A stretch of DNA of 64,000 nucleotides from Rhodamnia argentea. Lineage: Eukaryota > Streptophyta > Magnoliopsida > Myrtales > Myrtaceae. The stretch spans positions 16,864,001 through 16,928,000 of the forward strand of contig NC_063153.1 of the NCBI RefSeq assembly GCF_020921035.1. Direction: 5' to 3'. The notes beneath the pieces were generated by a model, which was given only the letters and a program-made list of their open reading frames with translations, was not told the DNA's origin and ran no database searches. Of the stretch, positions 15,322 through 41,177 are shown in pieces (position 1 is the stretch's first letter; each line of letters begins with the position of its first letter). The translations under genes and the position numbers were made by a program.

Positions 15322-15479
15322 GAATTGATGTCTCTCTGGTACGCCCCGTCGTTCAAGGCAGATGACGATCCGTTCTCCGTGCTTTTTACCAGAGGTAGTT
15401 CGAGCCAAATCTGTCGCACTCGGGCTGTCCATGTTAACGTTGCGGACTTAAATCTAAAACAATGACTTGGTATCATTTA

Positions 15480-16929
15480 TGAATCAGCAAGGACGACCTG
15501 TCATGTCCTAAAGTACTTTCTATCAGTCAACATTCTTGTCATTGAGACATTGGGCATCTCGGAATTGGGTTTTCCCTTAACTATCTTCCGAGTGAATGTA
15601 TCATACTTTTGTTGCGCATTCCCGATAATATATAAACTGATTGATCAAGCTTTTGATTTGCTTTTTTTTTTTTTTTGGTCGAAAGCTTTTGTATTTGGCA
15701 CTTGCGAGATTATAGATAGCTGTTTTCGCCATGATCAAAGTTCCACAAAACTTATTAACATTGAAATTTCATGTAAAAGTTAATTTACTGTATTTTTTCA
15801 TCCGCTCGAAACAATTTATAGTTTTCGAACGAAAGTATACCTTTCCCAAATCTAATATCCACGTGTAGATTTGCCAATTATCTTTTGATTTAACAAGCAG
15901 CCCGTCACTTGTCAATAAGATAATGAATCCACCAACTTGACATCTAGCAGTAGATTACCAAGTGTTTCATATTTTTAAGTGAACCCGTCGATTGACCAGT
16001 AAATCATCAACAAAATACAAAATTGGTTTTTTTTAAGAGTTTTACAAGTGGCTCCCTTCAGTTAATTTGTAACCGATCAACGAAAAAATAATTACCCAGT
16101 ATTTTAACATACAAATTTTAGGTTTTATCTTGTTTTCTTGTTTTTGTCAAAAGTAACATTTTGTATCATTTACTGGGAGACAAGAGAGAAAAATTTCAGT
16201 TCAAACGAAAATATATATTGGATAATTTCAAAATAAAACAAACTCCGGATGAAAAGAAAAGTCATCGGAAGAAAGATTATGTATCACACACTTAAAGAGC
16301 GCATCTATGACTTTTTCACAACATAATCGGCGGCTGATCACCGAATTCGTCTTCATGAATGAGCACACACCGAAAACTTTATCTATTATTACGGCTTTAC
16401 CTTTCAACAGTGTGCCCCTAGATTTGGTGTCATCCACTTGCTGAGCCCACAGCCGGCCCTAGTTTTTTTTTTTTTCTCTCTCTCTCTCTCTCCTTCACAC
16501 ACTTTCTTCTTCAACCTCCATGGATGGGAGGGTTTGACCTAGATCTCTCCCCTCTCTTTCTTTTCTTAAGCTGTTTTGTTTTTCTATTTTCTCTTCTTGC
16601 TTTCCTCTCTTTTAGGAATTTTTCTCTTCCTATTTAGTCTAAATCTGGAATCCTTTTTATCTTATTTTTGAGGAGATTTCTATCTCGTTCTAGTTTAGAT
16701 TAGGGTTTTTTGCCTGCATGTTTTCATGGTTTTGCTCTTCTCGAGTTTCATCGGTGAACAAGTCCAATTTCAAAAGGGATCATAGGAGTTTCGTGAAGGT
16801 TTCGTTCTCACGGGTGTCAATTGTATACTCGTTCAACCGATTTTATATTGTTGGAGTCTTGCATATAGTGGCAGATCCCTAAAATTGCTTTAAAATTAAG
16901 GATTTTATCTTGTTCGAATCTTGTATAAA
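15480..16929. other. LecRLK-A upstream spacer, no gene
   Basis: AT-rich spacer repeated in all units (27,590-29,060 and 41,340-42,800). It contains a T-run plus CT microsatellite (about 16,458-16,492) followed by a pyrimidine-rich, leader-like stretch. No coding segment was recognised; the small minus-strand frame at 16,228-16,437 is not kept open in the other units. Confidence 0.5.
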
Positions 16930-17420
16930 GTGGTTTAAAATTTTACGAGTGAGCCCGTCAAGTAATTAGTAACTTGCTAATGAAACTATGATGCGGCCAA
17001 GTGGGGTAAATTTCTAACGAAGTTGATAATTTACTATTTCAATGTTTGGCAACTTACTAAGCTAAAAGCCAGCTTAAGTTGGTAAATTACTACTTTCACG
17101 GTCCTTAACTGTACTCGCATGATCTTGTCTCCAAAGACAGCCTCCTAAGTTACTAATTTCACTGCTAAGTTTTTGTTGTGAGTGGTAAATTATATTCTAC
17201 TTGTTCCTTACTCTGCTAGTAACTTGTTATCGTATGAGTTGATTTATGTCGAGTCATTAAATTAGCAGGTAAGTCATTAATTTTACCGCTAACTTTTATT
17301 TTAAGGGCTAGATTCCTAAGAAAATTGATAACTTACTCTAGCATTTAATGTTGGTAAAATTGCTAACATTGTCCGTAAATTACCACCAGTAGGTTGGACA
17401 ACTATTAAATGATATTGCCA
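16930..17420. repeat. motif-dense segment (TTACTAA/TTAGTAA words)
   Basis: About a dozen short related words in both orientations (ttagtaac, ttactaa, gtaaattac, tgctaac, aagtcattaa) are packed into 500 bp. Dense inverted short motifs of this kind are typical of subterminal regions of DNA transposons. No termini were identified. It is repeated at about 29,050-29,530 and 42,800-43,270. Confidence 0.4.
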
Positions 17421-17541
17421 AAAGTACCCTGCACAGAAATTTGTTGACAAACGGAATATGATAATTCTACGTGATTGGAGTAGGCTTATGTCGTAATTTC
17501 ACTGGCCGGCAGCGCAAACTTATCTAATTTAGAACAGGGCA

Positions 17542-17970
17542 AGTCTGCATGGGCGTGACCCTTAAGCTTGCCGTGCCGCGACCCAGAAACTTTCCAAGAA
17601 GAAACAGACACATTTGGAAGACTATGACCAAAAAAATTCTTCTATGTTTGGTGGAGATTTTATGAGATGAAAACGATGGAGAAGAATGCAAGACCACAGT
17701 TGATTTCATTCCCTATGAAATGAAATCAAATCGATTAAAGTTGTTTTGTGGAAATTGAATGTTTCGGTCATAATGGCAGATGCTCGAACGTACGTGAAAA
17801 TTTCCTATGATGTCCCACATCAAAAGTGCGCTCCATGGATGTGATCTGTGGCGTTGCGGTGATGTAACGCTTAGACTGCGATGAGCCTTTTGCAGCTCGG
17901 AGAGAAATGGTTACATCAATTGAAGAACAAGCATAATTCTGCATATACGCTGCAACAATTTGCATTGAGG
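17542..17970. repeat. R repeat, copy 1 (A-type)
   Basis: Member of an eight-copy repeat family found upstream of each lectin kinase. Landmarks in order are 'agcttgccg', 'ttggaagact(a/t)tga', 'ttatgagatgaaaa', 'gaagaatg', 'atggatgtg(at/gt)', 'ggagag(a)aatggtta', 'cataattctgca' and 'tttgcat'. Function unknown. Confidence 0.6.
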
Positions 17971-18480
17971 AGGGGTTAATAAAAATGAGGATAAGTGCAC
18001 AAGAAGTCTCAAAACTTGTCGCCAAAGTGCAATCGAATATTAAAACTTTGAAAATGTGCAATCAAGTCCTAAAACTTGTTAAAGTGATGCAATTAGATCT
18101 CTTCGCTAGCTCGTTCACTTTGGCTAACGGAAAAAGTTAATCTTTCCATTGATGTTCAAAGAGTGAGAGGCTGATGTTGCCATGTCAGCCATTTTAGAAT
18201 AGAGAAATACTAAAAGATATTACTAATCAAATGTTCTATGGTGCAACTAATTTATGAATAATTGTTTTAAAAATTTTAGAGAAATAAAAATCAGAGTAAA
18301 AGGAAAAATCAAATAAAAAAAATTGCTTGTGTCGATCACAAAAATACATGAATAAAAAATATTTTCATCATCCAAGAAAATGTTTAGACATAAAAATTTT
18401 GTCGATAATGAAAATATATTTCATTGACTAATTACTACAAGCGATATAGGCGATTATTTTTAAGAAAATATTTTTCAAAT
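17971..18480. repeat. AT-rich repeat between R1 and the LecRLK-B 3' flank
   Basis: Starts with phrases like 'aagtctcaaaacttgtcgcc...caagtcctaaaacttgtta', typical of non-autonomous plant repeats, and continues as AT-rich DNA. It is repeated in units 2 and 3 (about 30,090-30,600 and 43,840-44,350). No gene. Confidence 0.4.
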
Positions 18481-19342
18481 CGTTCATTTTTCACGAGACA
18501 AACGCATCCTTAGAGGCATAATCAAAATCATAAGGTGAATGAACTTGAGCCGTGGCCCAAATAATTTAATGGGGGCCGGCCACATGGAGATGGAATTGGG
18601 CCACATGCTCTTGAAATTGACCTTGCATTGGAGATCTTGAGAACTGGAGTGACAAAGGAGGAAGTGTACACATCGACTGTAGCTCACGGAGTGATTTGCA
18701 GACTCTGATTTCTTTGGCCTGCAAGCAGTAAGTTGGTCGCAAAGAAAAGGAAGTGAGAGTCCCTTCTGTATGAATAGAAACGCAGCAGAACTGTTGAAAT
18801 CGGGATTTCCGGGCACTGATCCACGGCTCGAGGATCAGCAAGTTTCATATAGATCTCGTCGTTTAATTCAGCAGATGAGATCTGTTTTGCTTGGGTCAGG
18901 TTAAAACACTGTCCTACCGCCTCGAATGCAACTTTGATGAAGCAAAATTGTCGATGAACACATTAGTTTTTCCCGCGACATACAGGGATATGAATCCACC
19001 CATAATTCTTTAGAGATTCGACAAGATATGGCCCGTGAATTTATATTTTTCAGTGACCGATTCTGCATCATTCGATGTAGTTACTCGATCACTCAACAAT
19101 CTGAATCTCTCTTCAAAGTTGCATGCCGCCGGCAATGCAATCCCTTTTCGCCGACAATCATCAGCCCGTTCTCTCCTGGATACATGGGAGGGAATATTAA
19201 AGCTCGAGCGAGATTTAGCTTATTTAAGCGGGATCCATGCAAAGAACATTATGAAGCAGTTTATTCTGGCGTAATAACACCAACAGACAATACAAAATAC
19301 TTCTCATGATTAGACAGACACCAGTTGTCTTACTTACCAAAA
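18481..19342 (-). other. 3' flank of LecRLK-B1
   Basis: Conserved with the flanks of B2, B3 and LecRLK-A. It probably includes the 3' UTR and polyadenylation region. Short frames here are not conserved as protein. Confidence 0.45.
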
Positions 19343-21730
19343 TCATATTGAACTGAGAAAAGAGGTTGGATCTGGAGGGACAGAGACCTCAACAGCTCCT
19401 TCCAACATCTGAGTGATTTTCTTCATGGTTGGCCTCAAAGCCGGGTCTTCCTGGATGCACCACAACGCGGTCATCACAAATCTTCTCACCCTCCTTATGT
19501 CGCTTGATGCCTCCTCATCGCTCTCCACTAGCTCGAGCATGCTCCCCTCGTGGTAGCAGTCATACACCCAGTCGACCAGCACAATTTGAGCTTCGCTTTC
19601 CGCTTCTGGCTCGTAGTTCTTTCTGCAGCAGATGAGCTCTAGCAACAGAATGCCGAAGCTGTAAACGTCTACTTTTCCAGAAATAGGCATGTTCCTGAAC
19701 CATTCTGGCGCTAAATAACCTCTGGTTCCTCTAACCCCGGTGGTGGTTCGTGTTTGGTTCGCCATCAAGAGTTTAGCCAATCCGAAGTCTGATATTTTTG
19801 CGGTCAGAGAGCCATCAAGAAGAATATTTTGCGGCTTGATGTCGCAGTGGATTATATGCCTGGTGCAATCATCATGCAAGTAAGATAGCCCCCGCGCAAC
19901 ACCACAGGCAATTTCTACTCTTCTGTACCAGCTAGGCCTTGAAGAGCCAAAAAGGAAATCTGCCAAGCTGCCGTTGCTCATGAATTCATACACCAGAAGT
20001 CGGTGCTGACCCTCATTGCAGAATCCAAGCAACTGCACTAAGTTCTTGTGGTTAGTTTGGCTGATCGCACTCACTTCTCTTTCGAACTCCTTTTCCCTTT
20101 CTCCTGTCTTTGTCGCCAACACTTTTACCGCCACAAAATTTGCATCTTGGGATCTGAGAACACCTTTGTACACTGCTCCAAAAGCACCCCTACCCAGTTC
20201 TTCTTTGAATCCATCTGTTGCTTCTTGAAGCTCCTGAAAAGTGAAAGTCTGCGTGACTGCAGCTTGATTGATCTGGACTGCCCATAACAACTTAGAATCC
20301 CTAGATCGGAATCTTCTATAAATTAAACAGGTAATGAGGAGTAAAAGCAAGTTCACAAACACCGAGCTACTCAACAGCACTGATCCGATGATAATCAGGG
20401 TTGAATTCTTGTTTTTCTTCTGGCCGTCTCCTGTGGATTTTGAAGTCGAGTTCTGTATCCTGACCTTGATCAGAGCTTTTCCACCCACACTAGTATCCAT
20501 CACACCATTTGAAAGAGGGATCCTCTTTTTCCAGCAAGTTCCCTCGTCGCTGAAAATAGCAACTGCGCAAAAACAATCAACCAAGCAGGCCTCTCTGCAC
20601 CAGTCCTCAGTTTGTGCCGCGCTACGCTCATAATCAGAAAATGGCCAGTTTGTATGGAGCAGGCGATTGAAAGTGAACTGGTCTGTCTCGGGCCTACTTT
20701 CGTCACAACTCTGTGGTGTGAAGTCCTGTCTGCATCCGTTCATCTCGTTCGTTGAATCTAACGGAGTATATCCAGGTGGGCAGTGGCATCGGGGCCTCTG
20801 ATCGTCTCCAAGACTACAGTAGCTGTTGAAGCCACAAGCTCCAGTACCGATATTTAGAGGGATGCTTGTGCATATGTTTGGAGGGACCGGGGAAGAGACC
20901 ACCGACCAGCCCCTTGGCCATCTGGAACTTGAATTTGCTGTCTTAGGGTGGACATATTGCCTGAAGACCCCATCGTATTCAAGGATCGCCCTTTGGTAAA
21001 ATGCGCTGGTCGGGACTGTGTCTGAGGTGACGAGATTGAGTACTGCTCCATTCGTTGCCGTGAGGTAGACCTGACCACTTTGATTGAATATCAATTGGAA
21101 GCCGCTACCATTGGTATTGATGACCCAGTAAGCATCTGAGACATCCAGCGGGGTAGGAGTGGCATAGAACGCGAGATTTCCGTCTTGTAGTATGAAGTGG
21201 AATCTCCCAGCGGAGTAATTCATTTCGGAGTAGCGAGCGATAACTTTAGTCCCTTGATCTAACTGTTGCGTAGGAAGTATCGTGTCCGTCGGTTGGTTGA
21301 ACGTCTCCCACAAGTTGACATAGTTCTGGCTCACCAGGACAAAGTTCCCTGTGTCGAGCAGGACCGCATACGCTACACCAGCGACGGTTGGGTTAGGAGA
21401 CCACAACTCTCTTCCTCCTGGGTCGTTAAGCACCAGCCGACCGTCGGTGGTCAACTGGATCTTCGAACCTTCTGGTGCTAGAGTATCGCCGTTAGCCGAC
21501 CAGACTATTGTTTTGTCCTCTATCTTCTCGAACCATATAGCCAACAAATGAGCTCCTCTTCCCATTTTCCGGAACCCGAATGCGAACTCGCCTGACGGCG
21601 ACTGCCAGGAAGAGTTCCTGTCATCCGCTGTCAACGAGGAGCCCAAGGTTAAGTTGCCATGGGTCTGAGCTCCGGCGGAAAGGGGAAGCGCAACAAGTAC
21701 TAGAAGGATTCCTAGTACCATTGAAACCAT
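19343..21730 (-). CDS. LecRLK-B1: G-type lectin S-receptor-like Ser/Thr kinase (LECRK3/RLK1-like), intact
   Basis: Single-exon gene of 795 aa, the usual length and structure for this subfamily. Signal peptide 1-21; bulb-type lectin domain about 28-150; EGF-like Cys-rich module about 286-335 (CHCPPGYTPLD); PAN/apple about 342-423 (WCREACLVDCFC); transmembrane helix about 444-470 followed by YRRFRSR; kinase about 507-780. Kinase landmarks: glycine loop GRGAFG (513-518), Lys536 in VAVK, IIHCD (626-630), DFG (648-650) and LAPEW (673-677). The HCD in place of HRD makes it a non-RD kinase, as is common in plant immune receptors. It sits at the plasma membrane with an extracellular lectin domain; the ligand is unknown. 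There is no stop, shift or deletion, which makes it the only intact lectin kinase in the window. The ATG at 21,730 is used because it begins the hydrophobic signal; Met4 is an alternative. The upstream minus-strand region has only a weak TATA-like ACATAAGA. Confidence 0.93.
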   Translation of the reverse strand: MVSMVLGILLVLVALPLSAGAQTHGNLTLGSSLTADDRNSSWQSPSGEFAFGFRKMGRGAHLLAIWFEKIEDKTIVWSANGDTLAPEGSKIQLTTDGRLVLNDPGGRELWSPNPTVAGVAYAVLLDTGNFVLVSQNYVNLWETFNQPTDTILPTQQLDQGTKVIARYSEMNYSAGRFHFILQDGNLAFYATPTPLDVSDAYWVINTNGSGFQLIFNQSGQVYLTATNGAVLNLVTSDTVPTSAFYQRAILEYDGVFRQYVHPKTANSSSRWPRGWSVVSSPVPPNICTSIPLNIGTGACGFNSYCSLGDDQRPRCHCPPGYTPLDSTNEMNGCRQDFTPQSCDESRPETDQFTFNRLLHTNWPFSDYERSAAQTEDWCREACLVDCFCAVAIFSDEGTCWKKRIPLSNGVMDTSVGGKALIKVRIQNSTSKSTGDGQKKNKNSTLIIIGSVLLSSSVFVNLLLLLITCLIYRRFRSRDSKLLWAVQINQAAVTQTFTFQELQEATDGFKEELGRGAFGAVYKGVLRSQDANFVAVKVLATKTGEREKEFEREVSAISQTNHKNLVQLLGFCNEGQHRLLVYEFMSNGSLADFLFGSSRPSWYRRVEIACGVARGLSYLHDDCTRHIIHCDIKPQNILLDGSLTAKISDFGLAKLLMANQTRTTTGVRGTRGYLAPEWFRNMPISGKVDVYSFGILLLELICCRKNYEPEAESEAQIVLVDWVYDCYHEGSMLELVESDEEASSDIRRVRRFVMTALWCIQEDPALRPTMKKITQMLEGAVEVSVPPDPTSFLSSI

Positions 21731-21984
21731 GTTAGATGAAACTTGCGTGCTCCTTGAGGTGAGCTACGGCCTACTTCAGCCTTAAGGATGGAAAACCAGC
21801 CTTCTTATGTAGATTTTCCCACTTTCTATGCTACCCGAGTGTCCGCCGTACGTCCCCGTCGTTCACGGCGGTTGACTATTCTTTCTCCGTTTAATGTCCC
21901 ACAGCCAGTTTGAACTTTGAACCTAAGTTTGTGGATAGGCTTTGCCCATATCAAAACATAGTTGGACATATATCTACAATAATG

Positions 21985-22160
21985 TTTTTACCAAATTTTC
22001 TGAAGTTTTAGAGAAAATTTTAAATAAAGATCCGAAGTGCCCTTATTTTCTCAAATAAGGGTTTAAAGTGGATCTTGTTTAAAATAAGAACCACCGCAAG
22101 CCTTTAATTGAGAAAATATAGACACTTCGAGCCTTTTCCCAAAATTTTATAAAAGCTCCA
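21985..22160. repeat. fragment of the Mutator-like family seen at 3,401
   Basis: Phrases 'gaaaattttaaataaagatccgaagtg', 'tattttctcaaataagg' and 'cttgtttaaaataagaacc' match the arms of the element at 3,401-4,154. Related, shorter versions occur at about 34,045-34,150 and 47,865-48,015. Confidence 0.45.
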
Positions 22161-22163
22161 TCC

Positions 22164-22560
22164 GTAGTAAAAGCAAATGATTAAGCAAAATATAAGGTGA
22201 TATTTGTAGATATGATTTATTAATCAATCTTGTTTTTTGTCTTAATAAACCATTTGAAAGTATATGATCAGTATCCAATTTTTGTGATTTGATCTTTAAG
22301 TTATTGAGGCCTTTTTTTTTTTTTTCTTTTTTGCCCTTTTCACTTGATTTTGTTTCTGTTTTCCTTAAAGTTCTTATTAGTTCTATTATTATATTCATCC
22401 AAATATTAGAAAGTTATTATCTTATTATCTTATAATATTAACATGGATGGTAATTTTCTGATAACAATATCTTTGTAAATTTATTTTTCTTCATTTTCTT
22501 CATTTTTCCCTTTTTCTTTTTTTTTTTCCATAGAAAACAATAGTGAATGAAAATTTTCAA
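22164..22560. repeat. S repeat, unit 1
   Basis: AT-rich block starting 'gtagtaaaagcaaatgatt' and ending near 'tagaaaacaatagtgaatgaaaa'. There is one copy in unit 1 and two in each of units 2 and 3 (34,152; 35,976; 48,022; 49,801). Always followed by an R repeat. Confidence 0.65.
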
Positions 22561-22564
22561 ATTT

Positions 22565-22925
22565 AGAATAGAGGCAAGTCTGCTCCAAAAGCTTGCCGGG
22601 TCCAAGAAATTTTCCCGGGAACACGCCAATCCGGAAGACTTTGACCAGGCATCGCACATGTTTCTTTGGAGACTTCGTGAGATGAAAATGAATGGAGAAG
22701 AAGGCGGGGGCCGCCGTAGATTCAATCCACATGAATTCAAACCCTCGAAGGGACGAGGAAATTTGCTGCGTAGGACCGCGTCAAACATGAGCTCGATGGA
22801 TGTGGTCCGTGGCATTGTGGTGATTCAATGCTCAGAATGCGACGGGGTCTTGTGCGACTTGGAGAGGAATGGTTACAGCAATGATAAATGAACATAATTC
22901 TGCAGATACTCTGCAAAAGTTTGCA
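22565..22925. repeat. R repeat, copy 2 (B-type)
   Basis: Same landmarks as R1 but with 'gctccaaaagcttgccggg' at the start. A plus-strand frame of about 114 codons (22,547-22,891) is open here and parts of it are open in R5 and R8. It matches no family I know and is broken in the A-type copies. It is recorded as a repeat rather than a gene. Confidence 0.6.
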
Positions 22926-23094
22926 TACAGGAGTTCCGGGCTTCGACCTGGAACTCCTGTGTGTTTGGCTAAAGGGATGGGGTAGCGACATAACGATATC
23001 TTATTCTCGTGGACGAAACCACATCGTGCAAAACTTGCCACATCATGCAAAACTTACCACATCTTATAGCAAATTTGGTGTACATTTTAGTGTA

Positions 23095-24433
23095 AGGGCC
23101 TATATGTTAACGATTTTGTTTCTCTAATTCTGTTTATTAAAACAAAAATGAATGAAAATCATGGTTGTTAACATAAATAATTCTCATTCTGATTTTGTTC
23201 CCGGAAACAGTTTTAGAGCAAAAGCAAAAGCAAAAACAAAAACAAAAAAGTTAGTTACGGAAAAAGAATCGTTTTTTAGAATCACAAAATAGAACACATC
23301 TATCGCATTTTTCTTTCAGTTCTTTTATCACTTTTCACTCGATCTAAAATGTAACGATGTCTCATTTTCAAAGAAAAATATACAAGATAATAAAAAATAA
23401 AAATAAAAATAAAAAAATTCGACAAAATTAAAAAAAAATCAAAAAATTTCAGAAAATCCGTAAAAATAGAAGAAGCTTAGATTAGGCTAGTTTGACTTCA
23501 TTTTTATTGGGCCTAGATTCCCTAGATTTCATAAATTTTATTCATTTTTGGAAAAATCATAAATACTTTTGAAATTAAACCCGAACCATATTGCTTTAAG
23601 CCTTTACGGCTTCTTTGGGTTTTTATGATGCAATTTATCAATTTCATGATTCCCTAATTGATCGCACTTGATTTCATTGGTTGTGATTTGTATAGGTTTA
23701 AGTGCTTTTTACTTAGTCTAATTTTAGAAAATTTAGAAAAAGACAAAAAGAACCCGCATGAACAGTTAGCATTGTCAAAAGGGCATCATTGGAAACACCT
23801 ACGTAATCAAGTCCCTAGACCCTAAATTTCTCCAATTACGTAGAATCGAACGGTTTCTCTCGATTGTTCAATAAAGTTTTCGATCTACCTTCCTCAAATA
23901 CTAGTACCGACTTCATTTGTCAGTACACATCAACATGTCATTGATCACACTAAGATCGAATTTGGTATTCCTTCATTGCGATTTGATATAGACTCGTGAA
24001 GGTCCTAGTTAATCCGAAAGCACGCACTAACCTAACATGGTCTATCTTTTTTAAAACTTAAAATTACTCGTCATAATATGACAATTAAACATAATAACAC
24101 GAAAAAAATATTATATGTAATATGTAATATGTTAGACAAGAGAATCAATATAAATTAATCTTCGATTAATTCGAAATTTTGGATGAAATTTCACAAAGTA
24201 ACTATAATTATTTAACTTAAATGACAAAAATTGAGAAGAGAAATTATTTTCAAGAATAAAAATTTTATACAGTTATCAAGCACGTTTCTGTTTCAGGAAT
24301 AGAAATTTTATGCATTTACCAAGCACGTTCCAATTCTCTAAAACTCATCCCGAGAATAGAATCAAAAAAAAAAAAAAAAACAATTCTAATCAGAATTACA
24401 TTTTAGAATTAGAATCGTTGCTATGCATGCCCT
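23095..24433. mobile_element. 1.34-kb inverted-repeat element, unit 1
   Basis: Left end agggcctatatgttaacgatt and right end (reverse complement) agggcatgcatagcaacgatt are inverted repeats. The interior is AT-rich and non-coding. Copies in units 2 and 3 (36,792-38,182 and 50,629-51,976) have cleaner ends (AGGGCCTG). It is probably a non-autonomous DNA transposon; no clear target duplication, so the superfamily is left open. Confidence 0.55.
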
Positions 24434-26649
24434 AAGTGATCAATCCACAAAGCCGGAGTGTTCCTATTTATAAAGTTCACTGCATAAGAGGAAACTATCT
24501 ACAATTTTCTGCACATCTCTGATCTTACTGTCAAGAGTCCTGTGCATGTTTAGCATCTCAGTCACAGCAGAATTATTCCCGCCTGCACCGCCATGATAAC
24601 GAACGCTAAAACTTCCCGTCTATACATTCGTCCCACAAATAAATTACAACCCGCCGCTTACCCGATGCTCGATTAGCAGGGCCAAAGGGCCAATTTTCCA
24701 AGGATCGTAAGAGTTCAATCAGGTCATGACCTGATAATGAGCAGCTTCCGATAAGCTCTATACTGCATGAATCCCGCAAAAAATCTGGCCTGATTGAGTA
24801 GCAATTTTCCTGGATAAATTCCTGAATGCTCGACGGTTATGCTAAAATAGTTTGAATAGGCGGGGAAACTGTAGTCTTAATCTCTTCCATCTGCTCCTAA
24901 CAAGAGTCGGGTGCAATGCCAACACGTGCTCAGGCATAAAATCATGTCTTGTTAATATGCCCACCACAGGCGATCTCTGCAATGAAAGAGCGTCAAGGTT
25001 AAACAGAACATAAACATTAAAAAAAAAAAAAATACGTTCAACCAGAGCAGGATGTATTACAATAAATTCACCCCCGTTCACATCGAAGTATCACACCAAA
25101 TACTCGCAAGAGATGAGAAGAAAAATCAATCGTGATCCCTCACCCTGATCTCCTCCGATTTTCAAGTGAAACTAGGAAGCCACTAATTGTCAAGTAGCTG
25201 TATTTACAGAATTTCAGCTGAACGGAGAGGAGAACATCTTAGTGCAAAACTGAGCTAGTGAAGATACAAAAATGTTTGGCAGTCCTCACCAGAATCCTTT
25301 TCACAGGGTTAAACTCGAACATAAGAAATATAATCTAGTGAAATAAGAATGGAATAGGTGAGGGTGAGAAAATCGAGCACATGAGGGCAAAGGAGGATGG
25401 TATTAGTGTACTTCTGAAAAATGGCACCCAATTTGCTGAAAAGAAGGACGGCATCTCTGTTCTCTACATATCGTCAATTATCCAACCAAGAAGACAAAGC
25501 CTATTTTGCAAGTAGACACAGGGCTAGAGCAAGATCAGTGAATTATGTTGTAATACTCTGATGCAAAAGTAAAAAAGAACAATAGAATAGCTTTCGATAG
25601 AATTAAAGAAGTGAAGAAGAGAGCTAACGCCAGAGATTTTAGGTATCACCAGCAGATGTCTCAAGCCAACTTCCCGGAAAAGTATAAGAGCCTTCGCAAG
25701 TGACATCGTCTCCACGACCGTGTAAGGTGAAGCATTAGTAAATGGATGTAAATCCAAGAACATCTCCATCTCTTCTTCAGTCAATTCTATATCTTCTATC
25801 AAATTATAATGACCCAATCCCCTCTTCATGAAATCCTCCGCTGAAATCTGCTTGAAGGCATCAATATCTGCCGGAACTGGATCAGTCAAAAAAGCTTTCT
25901 TCTTTATAAGCTCTGTCAGATGAGCACGTAGAATCAACCCATACAGAAAGGGGGACTCTGAATGTGGAGGTTCATCAATTACGGGAAACCCGTTGTGCCT
26001 GGTAGTTCGCAACACGTGTACCACATTAGCGACCTTCTCGATGCCATGAAACAGCTGAAGGGCCCGCTCACTACATCACCAACCGTTAGTTGTCTCATAT
26101 ATGGCTCGGCATGGGTCTCAAGGTAAGGAAAGCCCTTTGCTTTCATTATAAGGTCATAGATGTTGCCGTTGAAAGCATCAGCTACCATCTTTGAAATAAG
26201 AAGAACCACCATCATCAAGGGCAGCAACAACAGATTGTTAGTCAGTTCCAAAAGGATTACACAGAGAGAAACTGTCATCCTCATAGATCCACCAAGAAAA
26301 GAAGCGGCACCCAGCACAGCAAAAAGACCACGGTTAAGATTGGAATGAGAACCGACCAACATTCCAACAAAACGCCCATAAGATGCGCCAGTAACTATTA
26401 CAGGAACAAAAAGGCCAGCAGGAGCAACAACGCCATAGCTAAGTATACTCAAGAAAAAACAAGTGACAAAGAATATAATTATAGAAGAGTAATGGAACTC
26501 GTCATCCGTGCCCTTGCTAAAGAGATTTTTTATTGCATCATCATTGGTGTTAAATATTAGGCTGGCAAGGTCGTTGTAATGTCCAGAAGGATATTGAAAC
26601 TTCTTGTAGTTGCCAGATCGGCCTATTCTGGGTCTCCATTTGATTTAGT
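24434..26649 (-). pseudogene. truncated CLC-c copy 1 (3' UTR, exon 7, part of exon 6, scrap of exon 1)
   Basis: Exon 7 is at 24,842-24,976 and the exon 6 remnant at 25,629-26,627, homologous to the intact gene at 52,385-56,635. The frame is broken by loss of one G in a G-run near 26,060. At 26,627 the exon 6 sequence jumps directly to about 20 bp of exon 1 (ctgggtctccatt...), skipping everything between the positions equivalent to 54,171 and 56,608. That scrap then joins the LTR. The copy lacks all the ion-selectivity motifs encoded by exons 3-4 and cannot make a transporter. Its splice donor and 3' end remain, so spliced read-through RNA is possible. Confidence 0.9.
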
Positions 26650-26878
26650 GTGAGAGAGTGGACATAGGCTTACCAAAAGCCGAATTACTATAATCTCTTG
26701 TGCATTATCTTTTACTCTCTACTTACCTCTATTTACTGTCTGGTAGAAATATTGCATGATTCCGTTGACTACATCCTCTCCTATCAAAGTTGAAGTTTTC
26801 AATTCCGCATTATCTTATCGAGTTTGATTATATTAACCTATTCATCCCCTCTAAGTGTTTGGTCTAGCCAAAACAACA
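26647..26878 (+). mobile_element. 3' fragment of the solo LTR (junction copy 1)
   Basis: Matches 14,526-14,755 at about 90 percent by eye (tggacataggcttaccaaaa..., ending ccaaaacaaca). It is bounded on the left by the CLC exon 1 scrap and on the right by LecRLK-A sequence. Confidence 0.8.
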
Positions 26879-27344
26879 CCTTGATCTAAATGTTGAGTAG
26901 GCAATATCGTATCGGTCGGTTGGCTAAACGTCTCCCACAGGTTAACGTAGCTCCGGCCAAATAGGACAATGCTCCCCGTGTGGAGCATGGCTGCATACGC
27001 TACACGGTATGGTTCTGGTTAGGAGACCACAACTCTCTTCCTTCTGGTCGGCAAGCACCAATCGGACTGTCGGCAGTCAACTGGATCTTCGAACCCTCCG
27101 GTGCTAGATTATCGCCATTCGTGGACCAGACGATGGCCTTGTCCTCTATCTTCTCAAACCATATAGCCAACAAATGAGCTCCTCTTCCCATTTTCCGGAA
27201 CCCGAAGGCGAACTCGCCAGACGGTGACAGCCAGTAAGAGTTCCTGTCATTCGCTGTTAACGAGGAGCCCAACGTGAGGTCGCTGTTGGTCTGAGCTTTG
27301 GCGGAAAGTGGAAGTGTGCCAAGTACGAGAAGGAATCGGAGCAT
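26879..27344 (-). pseudogene. LecRLK-A 5' fragment, copy 1
   Basis: ATG at 27,344 starts an intact signal peptide (MLRFLLVLGTLPLSAKAQ) and about half of a B-lectin domain. The frame stops after SPNQNHTV near 27,001, where about 10 bp present in LecRLK-A are missing. The rest of the kinase gene is absent because the sequence runs into the LTR fragment. It could encode only a short secreted lectin-like peptide of about 115 residues. The upstream TATAAAG is kept. Confidence 0.8.
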
Positions 27345-27428
27345 CACTGAAGCCAAAGGAGATGAAATTCCTTTCAGGTGCTCCTTGAGTGGATCTACTT
27401 CAGCGTTAAGGATGAAAAAACCAGCGCT

Positions 27429-27435
27429 CTTTATA
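27429..27435 (-). promoter_or_regulatory. candidate TATA box of LecRLK-A fragment 1
   Basis: TATAAAG on the minus strand about 90 nt upstream of the ATG at 27,344; same position as in LecRLK-A. Confidence 0.4.
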
Positions 27436-27589
27436 GAATTGATGTCTCTCTGGTACGCCCCGTCGTTCAAGGCAGATGACGATCCGTTCTCCATGCTTTT
27501 TACGAGAGCTAGTTCGAGCCAAGTCGGTCGCACTCGGGCTTTCCACGTTAACGTTGCGGACGTAAATTTAAAACAATGACTTGGCATCA

Positions 27590-29650
27590 TGTATGAATCA
27601 GCAAGGACGACCTGTTATGTCCTAAAGTACTTTCTACCAGTCAACATTCTTGTCATTGAGACGTTGGACGGCTCGGAATTGGGTTTTCCCTTAACTATCT
27701 TCCGAGTGAATGTATCTTACTTGTGTTGCGCGTTCTCGATAATATATAAACTAATTGATCAAGCTTTTGATTTGCTTTTTTTTTTTTTTTTTTTGGTTGA
27801 AAGCTTTTGTATTTGGCACTTGCGAGATTATAGATAGCTGTTTTCGCCATGATCAAAGTTCCACAAAACTTGTTAACATTGAAATTTCATGTAAAAGTTG
27901 ACTGGCCGTATTTTTTCATCCGCTCAAAACAATTTATAGTTTTGGAACGAAAGTATACCTTTCCCAAATCTAATATCCACGTGTAGATTTGCCAATTATC
28001 TTTTGATTTAACAAGCAGCCCGTCACTTGTCAACAGGACAATGAATCCACCCGCTTGACATCTAGCAAGAGATTACCAAGTGTTTTATATTTTCAAGTGA
28101 ACTCGTCGATTGACCAAGTAAATCATCAACAAAATACAAAATTGGTTTTTTTAGAGTTTTACAAGTGGCTCCCTTCGGTTAATCAAGAATCGATCAACGA
28201 AAAAATAATTACCCAATGTTTTAACATGCAAATTTTAGGTTTTATCTTGTTTTTTTTTTTTGTCAAAAGTAACATTTCGTATCATTCACTAGGAGACGAG
28301 AGAAAAATTTCAGTTCAAACGAAAATATATATTGGATAATTTCAAAATAAAACAAGCTCCAGATGAAAAGAGAAATCATTAGAACAAGGTTATGGATCAT
28401 ACGCTTAAGAGCGTCTCTATGACTTTTTCACAACATAATCGGCAGCTGATAACCGAATTTGTCTTTAGTAATGAGCACACACTGAAAACTCTATCTATTG
28501 CTATGGCTTTATCTTTCAATGGTGCGCGCCTAGATTTGGTGTCATCTACTTGCTGAGCCAACAGCTGGTCCTAGTTTTTTTTTTTTCCTCTCTCTCTCTC
28601 TCTCTCTCTCCTTCACACACTTTCTTCTTCAACCACCATGGATGGGAGGGGTTGACCTAGATCTCTCCCCCCTCTTTCTTTTCTTAAGCTGTTTTATTTT
28701 CTATTTTCTCTTCTTGCTTTTCTCTCTTTTAGGAGTTTTTCTCTTCCTATTTAGTCTAAATCTGGAAGCTCTTTTATCTTATTTTTTAGGAGATTTCTAT
28801 CTCGTTCTAGTTTAGATTAGGGTTTTCTGCTTGTATGTTTTCGGAGTTTCGCTCTTCTCGGGTTTCATCGGTGAATAAGTCCAATTTCAAAAAGGATCAA
28901 AGGAGTTTTGTGAAGGTTTCGCTCTCACGGGTGTCAATTCTATACTCGTTCAATCAATTTTATATTGTTCGAGTCTTGCATATAGTGGTAGATCACTAAA
29001 ATTGCTTTAAAATTAAGGATTTTATCTTGTTCGAATTTTGTATAAAGTGGTTTAAAATTTTACGAGTGAGCCCGTCAAGTAATTAGTAACTTGCTAATGA
29101 AACCATGATGCGGCCAAGTGGGGTAAATTTCTAAAGAAGTTAATAATTTACTATTTCAATGTTTGGCAACTTACTAAGCTAAAAGCCAGCTTAAGTTGGT
29201 AAATTACTACTTACACGGTCCTTAACTGTACTCGCAAGATCTTGTCTCCAAAGACAGCCTCCTAAGTTACTAATTTCACTGCTAAGTTTTTGTTGTGAGT
29301 GGTAAATTATATTCTACTTGTTCCTTACTCTGCTAGTAACTTGTTATCGTGTGAGTTGATTTATGTCGAGTCATTAAATTAGCAGGTAAGTCATTAATTT
29401 TACCGCTAACTTTTATTTTAAGGGCTATATTCCTAAGAAAATTGATAACTTACTCTAGCATTTAATGTTGGTAAATTGCTAACATTGTCCGTAAATTACC
29501 ATCAGTAGGTTGGACAACTATTGTATGATATTGCCAAAAGTACCCTGCACAGAAATTTGTTGACAAACGGAATATGATAATTCTACGTGATTGGAGTAGG
29601 CTTATGTCGTAATTTCACTGGTCGGCAGCGCAAACTTATCTAATTTAGAA
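27590..29650. other. unit 2 spacer, no gene
   Basis: Counterpart of 15,480-17,540, including the CT microsatellite (about 28,588-28,612) and the motif-dense stretch (about 29,050-29,530). No coding sequence recognised. Confidence 0.5.
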
Positions 29651-29654
29651 CAAG

Positions 29655-30085
29655 GCAAGTCTGCATGGGCGTGACCCTTAAGCTTGCCGTGCCGTGACCC
29701 GGAAACTTCCCAAGAAGAAACAGACACATTTGGAAGACTATGACAAAAAAAATTCTTCTATGTCTGGTGGAGATTTTATGAGATGACGACGATGGAGAAG
29801 AATGCAGAGACCGCAGTTGATTCATTCCCTATGAAATCAAATCAAACTGATTATAAGTTGTTTCGTGGAAATTGAATGTTTTGGTCATAATCGCAGATGC
29901 TTGAACGTACGTGAAAATTTCCTATGATGTCCCACATCAAAAGTGCGCTCCATGGATGTGATCTGTGGCGTTGCGGTGATGTAACGCTTAGACTTCAATG
30001 AGCCTTTTGCAGCTTGGAGAGAAATGGTTACGTCAATTGATGAACAAGCATAATTCTGCATATACGCTGCAACAATTTGCATCGA
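29655..30085. repeat. R repeat, copy 3 (A-type)
   Basis: Counterpart of R1 in unit 2. Confidence 0.6.
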
Positions 30086-31459
30086 GGAGGGGTTAATAAA
30101 AATGAGGATAAGTGCACAAGAAGTCTCAAAACTTATCGTCAAAGTGCAATCGAATATTAAAACTTTGAAAATGTGCGATCAAGCCATAAAACTTGTTAAA
30201 GTGATGCAATCAGATCTCTTCGCTAGCTCGTTCACTTTGGCTAACGGAAAAAGTTAATCTTTCCATTGATGTTCAAAGAGTGAGAGGCTGATGTTGCCAT
30301 GTCAACCATTTTAGAATAGAGAAATACTAAAAGATATTACTAATCAAATGTTCTTTGGTGCAACTAGAATATGAATAATTGTTTTCAAAATTTTAGAGAA
30401 ATAAAAATCAGAGTAAAAGGAAAAATCAAATAAAAAAATTGCTTGTGTCGATCACAAAAATACTTGAATAAAAAATATTTTCATCATCTAAGAAAATGTT
30501 TAGATATAAATTTTTATCGATAATAAAAATATATTTCATTGACTAATTACTACAAGCGATATAGGCGATTATTTTTAAGAAAATATTTTCCAAATTGTTT
30601 ATTTTTCACGAAACAAATGCAAGCTAAGAAGCATAATCAAAATCATAAGGTGAATGAACTTGACCCGTTGCCCAAATAATTTAATGGGGGCCGGCCACAT
30701 GGAGATGGAATTGGGCCACATGCTCTTGAAATTGACCGGGCATTGGAGATCTTGAGAACTGGAGGGACAAAGGAGGAAGATATACATCGACTGTAGCTCA
30801 CGGAGTGATCTGCAGACTCTGATTTCTTTGGCCTGCAAGAAGTAAATTGGTCGCAAAGAAAAGGAAGTGAGAGTCCCTTCTGTATGAATAGAAACGCAGC
30901 AGAACTGTTGAAATCGGGATTTCCGGGCAACGATCCACACCTCGAGGATCGGCAAGTTTCGTATAGATCTCATCGCTTAATTCAGCAGATGAGATCTGTT
31001 TTGCTTGGATCAGGTTAAAACACTGTTCTACCGCCTCGAATGCAACTTTGATGAAGCAAAATTGTCGATGAACACATTAGTTTTTTCCCGCGACATACAG
31101 GGATATGAATCCACCCATAATTCTTTAGAGATTCGACACGATATGGCCAGTGATTTTATATTTTTCTGTGACCGATTCTGCATCATTCGATGTAGTTACT
31201 CGATCACTTAACAATCTGAATCTCTCTTCAAAGTTGCATGCCGCCTGCAATGCAATCCGTTTTCGCCGACAATCATCAGCCCGTTCTCTCCTGGATACGT
31301 GCGAGGGAATGTTAAAAGCTCGAGCAAGATTTAGCTTATTTAAGCGGGATCCATGCGAAGAACCTTATGAAACACTTTATTCTGGCGTAATAGCACTAAC
31401 AGACAATACCAAATACTTCTCATGATTACACAGGACACCAGTTGTCTTACTGAGCAAAA
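30086..31459 (-). other. unit 2 AT-rich repeat and LecRLK-B2 3' flank
   Basis: Counterpart of 17,971-19,342. No gene. Confidence 0.45.
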
Positions 31460-33784
31460 TCATATTGAACTGATAAAAGAGGTTGGATCTGGAGGGACTG
31501 AGACCTCAACAGCTCCTTCCAACATCTGAGTGATTTTCTTCATGGTTGGCCTCAAAGCCGGGTCTTCCTGGATGCACCACAACGCGGTCATCACAAATCT
31601 TCTCACCCTCCTTATGTCGCTTGATGCCTCCTCATCGCTCTCCACTAGCTCGAGCATGCTCCCCTCGTGGTAGCAGTCATACACCCAGTCGACCAGCACA
31701 ATTTGAGCTTCGCTTTCCGCTTCTGGCTCGTAGTTCTTTCTGCAGCAGATGAGCTCTAGCAACAGAATGCCGAAGCTGTAAACGTCTACTTTTCCAGAAA
31801 TAGGCATGTTCCTGAACCATTCCGGTCCTAAATAACCTCTGGTTCCTCTAACCCCGGTGGTGGTTCGTGTTTGGTTCGCCATCAAGAGTTTAGCCAATCC
31901 GAAGTCTGATATTTTTGCGGTCAGAGAGCCATCAAGAAGAATATTTTGCGGCTTGATGTCGCAGTGGATTATATGCCTGGTGCAATCATCATGCAAGTAA
32001 GATAGCCCCCGCGCAACACCACAGGCAATTTCTACTCTTCTGTACCAGCTAGGCCTCGAAGAGCCAAAAAGGAAATCCGCCAAGCTGCCGTTGCTCATGA
32101 ATTCATACACCAGAAGTCGGTGCTGACCCTCATTGCAGAATCCAAGCAACTGCACTAAGTTCTTGTGGTTAGTTTGGCTGATCGCACTCACTTCTCTTTC
32201 GAACTCCTTTTCCCTTTCTCCGGTCTTTGTCGCCAACACTTTCACCGCCACAAAGTTTGTATCTTGGGATCTGAGAACACCTTTGTACACTGCTCCAAAA
32301 GCACCCCTACCCAGTTCTTCTTTGAATCCACCTGTTGCTTCTTGAAGCTCCCGAAATGTGAAAGTCTTCGTGCCTGCAGCTTGATTGATCGGGACTGGCC
32401 GTGACAACTTAGCTTTCCTAGATCGGAATCTTCTATAAATTAAACAGGTAATGAGGAGTAAAAGCAAGTTCACAAACACCGAGCTACTCAACAGCACTGA
32501 TCCGATGATAATCAGGGTTGAATTCTTGTTTTTCTTCTGGCCGTCTCCTGTGGATTTTGAAGTCGAGTTCTGTATCCTCTTTTTCCAGCAAGTTCCCTCG
32601 TCGCTGAAAATAGCAACTGCGCAAAAACAATCAACCAAGCAGGCCTCTCTGCACCAGTCCTCAGTTTGTGCCGCGCTACGCTCATAATCAGAAAGTGGCC
32701 AGTTTGTATGGAGCAGGCGATTGAAAGTGAACTGGTCTGTCTCGGGCCTACTTTCGTCACAACTCTGTGGTGTGAAGTCCTGTCTGCATCCGTTCATCTC
32801 GTTCGTTGAATCTAACGGAGTATATCCAGGTGGGCAGTGGCATCGGGGCCTCTGATCGTCTCCAAGACTACAGTAGCTGTTGAAACCACAAGCTCCAGTA
32901 CCGATATTTAGCGGGATGCTTGTGCATATGTTTGGAGGGACCGGGGAAGAGACCACCGACCAACCCCTTGACCATCTGGAACTTGAATTTGCTGTCTTAG
33001 GGTGGACATATTGCCTGAAGACCCCATCGTATTCAAGGATCGCCCTTTGGTAAAATGCGCTGCTCGAGACTGGGTCTGAGGTGACGAGTTTGGGTACTGC
33101 TCCATTCGTTGCCGTGAGGTAGACCTGACCACTTTGATTGAATATCAATTGGAAGCCGCTACCATTGGTATTGATGACCCAGTAAGCATCTGAGACATCC
33201 AGCGGGGTAGGAGTGGCATAGAACGCGAGATTTCCGTCTTGTAGTATGAAGTGGAATCTCCCAGCGGAGTAATTCATTTCGGAGTAGCGAGCGATAACTT
33301 TAGTCCCTTGATCTAACTGTTGCGTAGGAAGTATCGTGTCCGTCGGTTGGTTGAACGTCTCCCACAAGTTGACATAGTTCCGGCTCACCAGGACAAAGTT
33401 CCCCGTGTCGAGCAGGACCGCATACGCTACACCAGCGACGGTTGGGTTAGGAGACCACAACTCTCCTCCTCCTGGGTCCTTAAGCACCAGCCGACCGTCG
33501 GTGGTCAACTGGATCTTCGAACCTTCTGGTGCTAGCTTATCGCCGTTCGCCGACCAGACTATTGTTTTGTCCTCTATCTTCTCGAACCATATAGCCAACA
33601 AATGAGCTCATCTTCCCATTTTCCGGAACCCGAATGCAAACTCCCCCGACGGGGACAGCCAGGAAGAGTTCCTGTCATCCGCTGTCAACGAGGAGCCCAA
33701 GGTTAAGTTGCGGTGGGTCTGAGCTCCGGCGGAAAGGGGAAGCGCAACAAGTACTAGAAGGATTCCTAGTACCATTGAAACCAT
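31460..33784 (-). pseudogene. LecRLK-B2: near-complete lectin kinase with a nonsense codon
   Basis: Same gene as LecRLK-B1, with the start codon at 33,784 and end SFISSI at 31,460. Codon 59 reads TGA (33,610-33,608) where B1 has GGA in M-G-R-G-A; translation from the normal start would stop after 58 residues. Downstream the frame is open for about 713 codons. A 63-bp in-frame deletion (near 32,575) removes 21 residues between the PAN domain and the transmembrane helix (CWKKRI joins QNSTSK). The APE motif reads GPE, shared with B3. A late downstream start could give an intracellular or membrane form without a signal peptide, but that is speculation. Confidence 0.9.
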
Positions 33785-34044
33785 GTTAGATGAAACTTGC
33801 GTGCTCCTTGAGGTGAGCTACGGCCTACTTCAGACTTAAGGATGGAAAACCAGCCTTCTTATGTAGATTTTCCCCCTTTCTATGCTACCCGAGTCTCCGC
33901 CGTACGTCCCCGTCGTTCACAGCGGTTGACTATTCCTTCTCCGTTAAATGTCCCACAGCTAGTTTGAACTTTGAACCTAAGTTTGTGGATAGGCTTTGCC
34001 CATATCAAAACATAGTTGACATATATCTACAATAATACTTTTAC

Positions 34045-34151
34045 CAAATTTTCCGAAGTTTTAGAAAAAATTTCAAATAAAGGCTGAAACTGGATCTTGT
34101 TTAAAATAAGAACTTCTCCAGGTCTTTAATTGAGGAAATGTAGACACTTCT
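34045..34151. repeat. Mutator-like arm fragment, unit 2
   Basis: Short counterpart of 21,985-22,160 with an internal deletion. Confidence 0.35.
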
Positions 34152-34550
34152 GTAGTAAAAGCAAATGATTAAGCAAAATATAAGGTGATATTTGTAGATA
34201 TAATTTATTAATCAATCTTGTTTTTTGTCTTAATAAACCATTTGAAAGTATATGATCAGTATCCAATTTTTGCGATTTGATCTTTAAGTTATTGAGGCCT
34301 TTTTTTCTTCCTTTTTTGCCCTTTTCACTTAATTTTGTTTCTGTTTTCCTTAAAGTTCTTATTAGTTCTATTATTATATTCATCCAAATATTAGAAAGAT
34401 ATTATCTTATTATCTTATAATATCATCATGGATGGTAATTTTCTGATAACAATATCTTTGTAAATTTATTTTTCTTCATTTTCTTCATTTTTCCCTTTTC
34501 TTTTTTTAATAGAAAACAATGGTGAATGAAAACTTTTCAAAGTTAGAATA
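34152..34550. repeat. S repeat, unit 2 first copy
   Basis: Counterpart of 22,164-22,560. Confidence 0.6.
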
Positions 34551-34629
34551 AAGGCAAGTCTGCTCCAAAAGCTTGCCGGGTCCAAGAAATTTTCTTAGGA
34601 ACACACCAATTTGGAAGACTTTGACCAAG

Positions 34630-34798
34630 TGTAACATCTTGTCCCACATCGCCTAGGCCCTCTTTTGATTTGTAAGACGCGTTTTCTAAGAGTTGTATGG
34701 GTGGCCTCGGAAGAACAAAACTATGAGAACTGTGTGTCCAAAGTGGACAATATCTTGGAAGTGGCGCAGCGAAAGCGTGGTGGGCCTAGGCCGTTACA
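34630..34798 (+). mobile_element. TRIM-like solo LTR, 169 bp, with 5-bp target duplication
   Basis: Starts TGTAACATCTTGTCCCACAT and ends GGCCGTTACA. It is flanked by CCAAG on both sides (34,625-34,629 and 34,799-34,803). The internal phrase 'aaagtggacaatatctt' is typical of small plant TRIM-class LTRs. The empty site is preserved in unit 1 (gaccaggcatcg near 22,645), which proves insertion. A counterpart is at 48,500. Confidence 0.75.
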
Positions 34799-34990
34799 CC
34801 AAGCATCGTACACGTTTAGTTGGAGAATTCATGAGATGAAAATGAATCGAGACCCCGCCGCCTAGGCCGTTACACCAAGCCTCGTACATGGGGGGTGGGG
34901 TGGGTGGGGCGGGGGTGTGTGGTATGGGGCCTAGGCCGTTACATCAAGCATCGTACATGTTTAGTTGGAGACTTCATGAGATGAAAATGA
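34787..34990. repeat. local tandem repeats of about 70 bp
   Basis: The string cctaggccgttac(a/t)ccaag followed by 'catcgtacatgtttagttgg' and 'gagatgaaaatgaat' occurs three times in variant form (near 34,786, 34,863 and 34,929), with a G-rich spacer (ggggtgggg) between the later copies. It looks like local slippage that copied the end of the TRIM LTR with its flank. Confidence 0.6.
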
Positions 34991-35243
34991 ATAGAAGGCG
35001 GGCCCCACCGTAGATTCAATCCACGTGAATTCAAACCCATTGCTCGCGGAACTTGAATGCTTCAATCAGCTCCAACGTACGTGAAAATTTACTGTGTAGT
35101 CCCGTGTCAAACATGAGTTCAATGGATGTGGTCCATGGCTTGGGGTGATCTAATGCTTAGAATGCGACGGGTCTTGTGCGACTTGGAGTCGAATGGTTAC
35201 AGCAACGATGAATTACCATAATACGGCAGTTACTCCACAAAAC

Positions 35244-35699
35244 TGTTGGATATAAACCAAATTCATAAATGTCGAGACTATCGATCGACTTCCAATGTGC
35301 CGATTCAGTATCAATTCAGTGAATGAGGTGTTGATCGGTTGCTGATGTCCCTTGGACTCCCAAGGCGGATGCACGAATCAAGTCAAGTCTTTATTGTAGC
35401 CTTATTTTTGACAATCTTTATTATTGAGTCATTATTACTTGAGTCTATCAAAGAATCGGTTCATATTCCGATGTGTAGTTAATATAATGTATTTACATCT
35501 CGCATATTCGTGTTTCTAGAGTAAATCAAGAGTCGTGTGCCAAGCCTATAAATAGACGTGTCTTGTAACCATTTTGATATAGGTGAATCGATTATAAATG
35601 TACAGAATATTGAAAAGTCATTTTCTATATTCTCTTCCTTCATGAGCAGAGTTGAGTTGTGAGTGTTTGTGAGTGCCCCACCTTCAATTTATCCCATCA
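35244..35699 (+). mobile_element. Copia-type 5' LTR (about 456 bp)
   Basis: Starts TGTTGGATATAAACC and ends TTATCCCATCA. It contains a TATA-like tataaat and is followed by attGGTGTCAGA, a match to the primer-binding site complementary to initiator-Met tRNA that is usual in plant Copia elements. The element is truncated a short way into gag. A counterpart is at 49,076-49,523. Confidence 0.75.
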
Positions 35700-35748
35700 A
35701 ATTGGTGTCAGACCTTATGATTTTCGTAAAAGTTTACTGTTTGTAATC

Positions 35749-35975
35749 GCGGCTACAAACACTCAGCTTCCTCTTTAGTATCCTCGTCTTACCAAAGAAA
35801 ATTTTGGTAATTGGGCTTCTAGAATGAGAGCCTTTCTCGGCGCCCATGGTGTATGTGAAATGGCGAATGATGGCTATGAGGAGCTAGATGACGAAGCCAC
35901 CTCGAACCAAAACCATATGAATGCCCTGGGGACGGTAAGAATGAAAGACCAATATGCCTTGTTCATAATCAATCT
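35749..35975 (+). pseudogene. truncated Copia gag remnant
   Basis: Reads as the beginning of a Copia-type gag-like protein (NFGNWASRMRAFLGAHG). The start codon is replaced by GCG, and the sequence breaks off exactly where the second S repeat begins. No protease, integrase or reverse transcriptase follows, so the element is dead. Confidence 0.7.
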
Positions 35976-36290: not shown

Positions 36291-36291
36291 A

Positions 36292-41093: not shown

Positions 41094-41177
41094 CACTGAA
41101 GCCAAAGGAGATGAAATTCCTTTCAGGTGCTCCTTGAGTGGATCTACTTCAGCGTTAAGGATGAAAAAACCAGCGCT

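What the first reader, a model, noticed from the sequence alone, without database searches (positions are those of the whole stretch)
26600..26900. Chimeric junction: CLC exon 6 / CLC exon 1 / solo LTR / lectin kinase
At about 26,627 the CLC exon 6 sequence jumps to a 20-bp piece of CLC exon 1 that lies about 2.4 kb away in the intact gene (shared att at the joint). That piece then jumps into the last 230 bp of the LTR that interrupts LecRLK-A (shared agt at the joint). The array was thus born by two microhomology joints, which is unlike simple unequal crossing-over between repeats.
Basis: seen in the sequence. Interest (0 to 1): 0.8.

Follow-up and report, generated by a model that had tools for sequence, protein, structure and literature searches.

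The report
Tandem duplication with a copied patch
In the genome of a myrtle-family tree, a block of about 13 kb was duplicated head to tail by a faulty DNA repair that pasted in a 17-letter scrap copied from 2.4 kb away, and the block was later copied again, probably by ordinary recombination; it is a clear example of a known kind of repair scar.

Summary
The joint is real. Both inner borders of a three-unit array (14,523-26,627; 26,628-40,376; 40,377-54,171) read: CLC-g exon 6, then 17 nt copied from CLC-g exon 1, then the last 233 bp of a solo LTR lying in a lectin-kinase pseudogene. The donor (56,608-56,624) is 2,436 bp beyond the exon 6 break, on the same strand. Within the 17 nt each joint differs from the donor at one base, the two bases of one CpG, so the original patch was probably exact. 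The left joint shares ATT. Intact outer flanks show that the joints are derived. The CLC-g protein is 100% identical to one of Rhodamnia argentea. The first duplication was not unequal crossing-over; it fits templated end joining (Pol theta) or microhomology-primed template switching, which cannot be told apart here. The third copy repeats the same joint; unequal crossing-over is the simplest source, but the evidence for where it crossed is weak. I found no sign of a new fusion gene; the CLC fragments are decaying. It is a well-preserved member of a known kind.

The parts
13706..14755 (.). insert read as a solo LTR (1,050 bp, orientation unknown) in lectin-kinase pseudogene A; CCTTG repeats at 13701-13705 and 14756-14760
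   Evidence: empty site in the 3 lectin-kinase B copies; coordinates, right end corrected by one base
14523..14755 (+). part of the LTR that is repeated at both inner joints; left breakpoint of the duplicated unit
14523..26627 (+). unit 1 of the array
   Evidence: self-comparison and three-way alignment
26625..26649 (+). joint 1: ATT shared by exon 6 and donor, 17-nt patch (26628-26644), T shared by donor and LTR (26645), then LTR
26628..40376 (+). unit 2 of the array, beginning with the patch
40374..40398 (+). joint 2: same breakpoints as joint 1; differs from the donor at the other base of the same CpG
40377..54171 (+). unit 3 of the array, running into the intact CLC-g gene
52385..56635 (-). 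intact CLC-g gene, 7 exons, 770 aa; right breakpoint in exon 6 (54300-53172) at 54171
   Evidence: gene model; 100% identical to P0001 of Rhodamnia argentea
56605..56625 (+). donor of the patch, in CLC-g exon 1
24845..26632 (-). truncated CLC copy of unit 1, with a frame change near codon 583
   Evidence: tblastn, ORFs
38594..40381 (-). truncated CLC copy of unit 2, with a frame change near codon 716
   Evidence: tblastn, ORFs

Best explanation
The array arose in two steps. Step 1 (joint shown, process inferred): in a single-copy locus with the LTR insert in lectin-kinase pseudogene A at one end and an intact CLC-g gene at the other, a 3' DNA end in CLC-g exon 6 (or the one in the LTR) annealed through a few bases to CLC-g exon 1, 2.4 kb away, copied about 17 nt, let go and was joined to the other end. 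The result was a head-to-tail duplication of about 12-14 kb with a templated patch. The route is Pol theta-type templated end joining or microhomology-primed template switching (MMBIR/FoSTeS); I hold these about equal. Step 2 (inferred): the two-unit array grew to three by unequal crossing-over between the units, which copied the joint, followed by patchy gene conversion. The truncated CLC copies and two of the three lectin-kinase B copies then decayed.
For: Joint and donor at base level. Chance controls. CLC-g intact across the break, and residue 393 is T in unit 3 and in both outgroup proteins compared (P0003, P0002) but R in both joints. LTR insert whole on the left flank, empty sites in the 3 lectin-kinase B copies. 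Same breakpoints at both joints, and in the patch only the two bases of one CpG differ. The stretches across the two joints are 97.2% identical over 8,819 columns. Units 2 and 3 group in lectin-kinase B (100/99). In the last 1.35 kb sites joining units 1-2, 2-3 and 1-3 are 17, 10 and 6, and units 1 and 2 share one derived residue, V459. Precedents seen as passages: PMC7368036, PMC12426944, PMC13015775, PMC6902434.
Against: Exact microhomology is weak at both joints. For step 2, the strongest change along the array is from strong to mild affinity of unit 2 for unit 3 (at about 28,897; 0 of 2,000 shuffles reach it), not a switch to unit 1; a second change was weak and not tested, and sites favour 2-3 over 1-2 in 6 of 7 segments. 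Divergence is a mosaic, 0.9% to 10% by sub-region, so the crossover point is not located. The donor is 2.4 kb from the break, while the papers seen place or seek templates close by (PMC7368036 'immediate vicinity'; PMC5730883 and PMC8421209 within 100 bp), so distance does not favour either route on what I saw. No reads and no related genomic DNA were examined.
Confidence: 0.75

Rival explanations
1. The joint first closed a DNA circle (exon 6 joined to the LTR with the patch), which then recombined back into its own locus and gave the same tandem duplication.
For: The final sequence would be the same. A paper on circular DNA and structural variants in Arabidopsis mutants exists (PMC10462705, listing and start of abstract only).
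Against: It needs an extra step, and nothing in the window calls for it.
Confidence: 0.1
2. The array arose by unequal crossing-over alone, between repeats that flanked the unit.
For: Unequal crossing-over is the usual explanation for tandem gene arrays (PMC12405883, passages) and probably made the third copy here.
Against: At the founding joint exon 6 and the LTR share only a few bases, and a 17-nt patch from a third place lies between them.
Confidence: 0.03
3. Both joints are assembly artefacts.
For: No reads were examined.
Against: The units differ by about 1-10% by sub-region, the two joints differ from each other, and the patch is a proper copy of a third place.
Confidence: 0.03
4. The third unit came from a second, independent templated duplication.
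For: None found.
Against: Both breakpoints and the LTR-derived T are the same at the two joints.
Confidence: 0.01

Closest known systems
Pol theta-dependent tandem duplications of brc-1/brd-1 worms (PMC7368036, passages)
   Same: Head-to-tail, mostly about 10-20 kb, joints with microhomology; the figure legends also have a class of duplications with insertions (numbers not seen).
   Different: There the enzyme was shown by knock-out; here it is inferred. The templated insertions counted there (24 of 33) were at deletions, with templates in the immediate vicinity; here the template is 2.4 kb away.
Templated insertions of Pol theta end joining, including plants (PMC12426944, passages)
   Same: Short patch copied from nearby DNA, primed by minimal pairing.
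   Different: Typically seen at deletions and T-DNA joints, not at a duplication that founded a gene array.
MMBIR/FoSTeS template-switch joints (PMC8421209; PMC6902434; passages)
   Same: Microhomology or mismatched microhomology at the joints, a near template followed by a distant one, duplications.
   Different: The search in PMC8421209 was for inverted copies within 100 bp; the patch here is direct and from 2.4 kb.
Kochia scoparia EPSPS tandem array (PMC6808082, passages)
   Same: A plant array modelled with both unequal crossing-over and a microhomology-mediated joint.
   Different: There the first step is modelled as unequal crossing-over between mobile elements; here the first step is the templated joint.

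Membership tests
Templated-insertion joint (Pol theta end joining or MMBIR) | Insert copied from an identifiable template near the joint | tested here: met
   17 nt, one CpG base off the donor in each joint; 0 of 300 random 17-mers within 1 mismatch near the breaks
Templated-insertion joint (Pol theta end joining or MMBIR) | Microhomology at both ends of the insert | tested here: inconclusive
   3 nt on the left (6% of random joints), 1 nt exact on the right (45%); the right joint is 4 of 5 with a mismatch, a pattern at 0.35% of random positions
Pol theta end joining | Dependence on Pol theta | not testable with these tools
   needs mutant plants
MMBIR/FoSTeS | Replicative template switching rather than joining of two ends | not testable with these tools
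   final sequence is the same
Unequal crossing-over (first duplication) | Long homology between the two breakpoints | tested here: not met
   no match between exon 6 and the joint past 26,627, only 1 base between LTR and joint upstream of 26,645
Unequal crossing-over (third unit) | Same joint at both inner borders | tested here: met
   same breakpoints, 97.2% identity across the joints
Unequal crossing-over (third unit) | Middle unit switches from unit 3-like to unit 1-like | tested here: inconclusive
   unit 3-like end is clear (155 v 15 v 21 sites); unit 1-like end is weak (17 v 10 v 6)
Solo LTR | Target-site repeats and empty site | tested here: met
   CCTTG repeats; empty site in 3 lectin-kinase B copies
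Solo LTR | TG...CA ends | tested here: inconclusive
   CG...CA
Solo LTR | Related full-length element elsewhere | not tested
   own-genome search did not complete (8 tries)

The most novel reading that the evidence does not exclude
The joint is a germline fossil, in a wild tree, of a Pol theta-dependent tandem-duplication process like that of BRCA1-deficient worms (10-20 kb, templated patch, mismatched microhomology), and such events, rather than unequal crossing-over, are the usual founders of plant receptor-kinase arrays.
Probability: 0.15. Interest if true: 0.55.

Novelty: new member of a known kind. Interest (0 to 1): 0.3.

Why it matters
The founding break of a tandem gene array is often blurred by later recombination (my general knowledge). 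Here one founding joint survives in two copies with its template still beside it, so the non-homologous first step can be told from the later copying at base level. It shows how an array can start without flanking repeats, and it cautions against assuming unequal crossing-over for the first duplication in receptor-kinase clusters.

Tried and rejected
Two independent templated events for the two joints: rejected, since both breakpoints and the LTR-derived T are the same. Unequal crossing-over for the first duplication: rejected, since exon 6 and the LTR have no long homology at the joint. A fusion gene at the joint: not supported. In the CLC frame the open frames begin at a stop (TAA) directly upstream of the patch and the first in-frame ATG of joint 1 is about 95 codons in (25979-26644; similar at 39389-40393), and both CLC fragments change frame; splicing from an upstream exon was not tested. 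Donor from the second R. argentea CLC-g (P0087): unlikely, because its N-terminus reads IEANGDDES against TESNGDPES in the donor gene; its DNA was not seen. Hairpins at the breaks: two weak inverted repeats near the exon 6 break (one of 12 nt, 83%, at 54,117-54,144), one near the LTR break (10 nt, 90%, arms 139 apart), none near the donor; no control was run, and I did not pursue them. Dating: not attempted, because divergence runs from 0.9% to 10% by sub-region. My first splice of CLC-g was off by one at the exon ends and its CLC tblastn is void; redone. One search puts the LTR end one base too far; corrected.

Full report
What the window is. The CLC gene at the right end of the array splices to an intact 770-aa protein (exons 56635-56499, 56353-56153, 55872-55695, 55397-55135, 54660-54391, 54300-53172, 52519-52385; minus strand). 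It is 100% identical over its length to P0001, 'putative chloride channel-like protein CLC-g [Rhodamnia argentea]', with a longest contig of 32.7 Mb. The three lectin-kinase B translations among the six proteins given to all match B_lectin and kinase models. Rhodamnia is in Myrtaceae, tribe Myrteae. In Syzygium oleosum a CLC-g (P0003, 96%) and a lectin kinase (P0122, 86% to lectin-kinase B) are both listed with a contig of 2,189,202 bases, so the two genes are probably linked there too.

The array. Self-comparison and a three-way alignment give three units in one orientation: 14,523-26,627, 26,628-40,376 and 40,377-54,171. The left outer flank carries the rest of the LTR insert and of lectin-kinase pseudogene A; the right one carries the rest of CLC-g. 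Each inner border is CLC exon 6 joined to the LTR.

The joint. The exon 6 match ends at 26,627 with ATT (54,169-54,171 in the intact gene). The 17 nt at 26,628-26,644 match 56,608-56,624 in exon 1 of CLC-g, 2,436 bp further on and on the same strand; the donor too is preceded by ATT. From 26,645 the sequence is LTR (14,523 onward). One T is shared exactly by donor and LTR. The joint then has LTR's T where the donor has C, and after that AGT is common to all three. The right-hand microhomology is thus 1 nt if exact and 4 of 5 if one mismatch is allowed. That mismatched pattern, at one fixed position, occurs at 0.35% of random places, against 45% of random joints with 1 nt or more of exact overlap and 6% with 3 nt or more. 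Mismatch-containing microhomology is described for Pol theta (PMC13015775, passages) and for replicative template switching (51 of 159 join-points in PMC6902434, passages).

The patch is not chance. Within 2 mismatches the 17 nt has 3 matches in the window, in line with the two joints and the donor listed. Of 300 random 17-mers with the window's dinucleotide make-up, 0 matched within 1 mismatch and 3 with 2 mismatches in the 12 kb around the two breaks. In the patch joint 1 has TG and joint 2 has CA where the donor has CG. The simplest ancestor is an exact copy whose CpG decayed on opposite strands in the two joints (inference).

Polarity. The break lies inside an open exon, and residue 393 is T in the intact copy and in the two outgroup proteins compared but R in both joints. 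The LTR insert is 1,050 bp long (13,706-14,755) with CCTTG repeats, and the three lectin-kinase B copies show the empty site, though with one more C than the flank in A. Both outer flanks are therefore ancestral and the joints derived. That the insert is an LTR rests on its ends (CG...CA; TG...CA is canonical), its repeats and its length; its orientation is unknown, and no relative of it was found, since the own-genome search did not complete.

How the third unit arose. Both joints have the same breakpoints, so they descend from one event. Unequal crossing-over in a two-unit array predicts a middle unit like unit 3 at its left end and like unit 1 at its right end. Of 720 informative sites, 172 join units 1-2, 399 join 2-3 and 149 join 1-3. 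The left end is clear: 155 (2-3) against 15 (1-2) and 21 (1-3) in the first 2.5 kb of the alignment; in lectin-kinase B units 2 and 3 group with 100/99, and the three copies with 100/100, in a tree with 17 outside proteins. The right end is weak: 17 (1-2), 10 (2-3) and 6 (1-3) in the last 1.35 kb, plus one shared derived residue, V459. Against a single clean crossover, the strongest change along the alignment is from strong to mild affinity for unit 3 (near 28,897), and 2-3 leads 1-2 in six of the seven segments. Divergence by sub-region runs from 0.9% (units 2-3) to 10% (units 1-3), and the stretch with intron 6 is about as similar as exon 6. Later gene conversion is likely, and the crossover point cannot be placed.

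What it does. I see no gain at the joint. The CLC fragments lack codons 1-391, have no near in-frame ATG at the joint, and change frame near codons 583 (unit 1) and 716 (unit 2). Of the three lectin-kinase B copies only that of unit 1 is open throughout (795 aa); unit 2 has a stop at codon 59 and a 63-bp gap, and unit 3 changes frame near codon 730. Expression was not tested.

Mechanism and literature. Tandem duplications of brc-1 and brd-1 worms, which polq-1 knock-out suppresses, are mostly about 10-20 kb, and the figure legends have a class with insertions whose numbers I did not see (PMC7368036, passages). Templated insertions are called a hallmark of this pathway in metazoans and plants, up to about 35% in A. 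thaliana (PMC12426944, passages). MMBIR makes joints of the same look, including a near template followed by a distant one (PMC8421209, passages). The papers seen place or seek templates close by for both routes, so the 2.4 kb does not decide between them; I hold the two about equal. In rice, 4,872 of 9,196 copy-number deletions were assigned to non-homologous recombination by their authors (PMC4812662, passages). The Kochia EPSPS array is modelled as unequal crossing-over with one later microhomology-mediated joint (PMC6808082, passages). Seven paper searches listed nothing that I recognised as this locus; only named the species, and its eight papers were not read.

Limits. The own-genome search was tried eight times and never answered. 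No reads and no related genomic DNA were available, so an assembly artefact is unlikely but untested.

Noticed in passing
10581-10823: About 245 bp are 72-73% identical to the stretch just downstream of the CLC stop codon in the three units (for example 24457-24703), beside lectin-kinase pseudogene A: perhaps the remnant of an older CLC copy and an older duplication of the same gene pair.
   Followed up: partly
22519-22631 against 34357-36345 and 48227-50181: Unit 1 lacks about 1.8 kb that units 2 and 3 have between two similar segments (34153-34439 and 35975-36244, 85%): either a deletion between repeats in unit 1 or an older internal duplication.
   Followed up: no
27015-28013 against 40764-41759: Units 2 and 3 are 100% identical over about 1 kb although their flanks differ by several per cent, which looks like recent gene conversion.
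   Followed up: no
5546-8878: Plus-strand open frames of another receptor-like kinase, outside the array and only distantly like the lectin kinases (39-59% over short stretches).
   Followed up: no
58127-58296 and 59156-59326: An inverted pair of about 170 bp (77%) about 860 bp apart downstream of CLC-g, possibly a mobile element.
   Followed up: no
protein P0087: A second R. argentea CLC-g (79% identical) is listed with a contig of the same length (32.7 Mb) as that of the window's CLC-g.
   Followed up: partly
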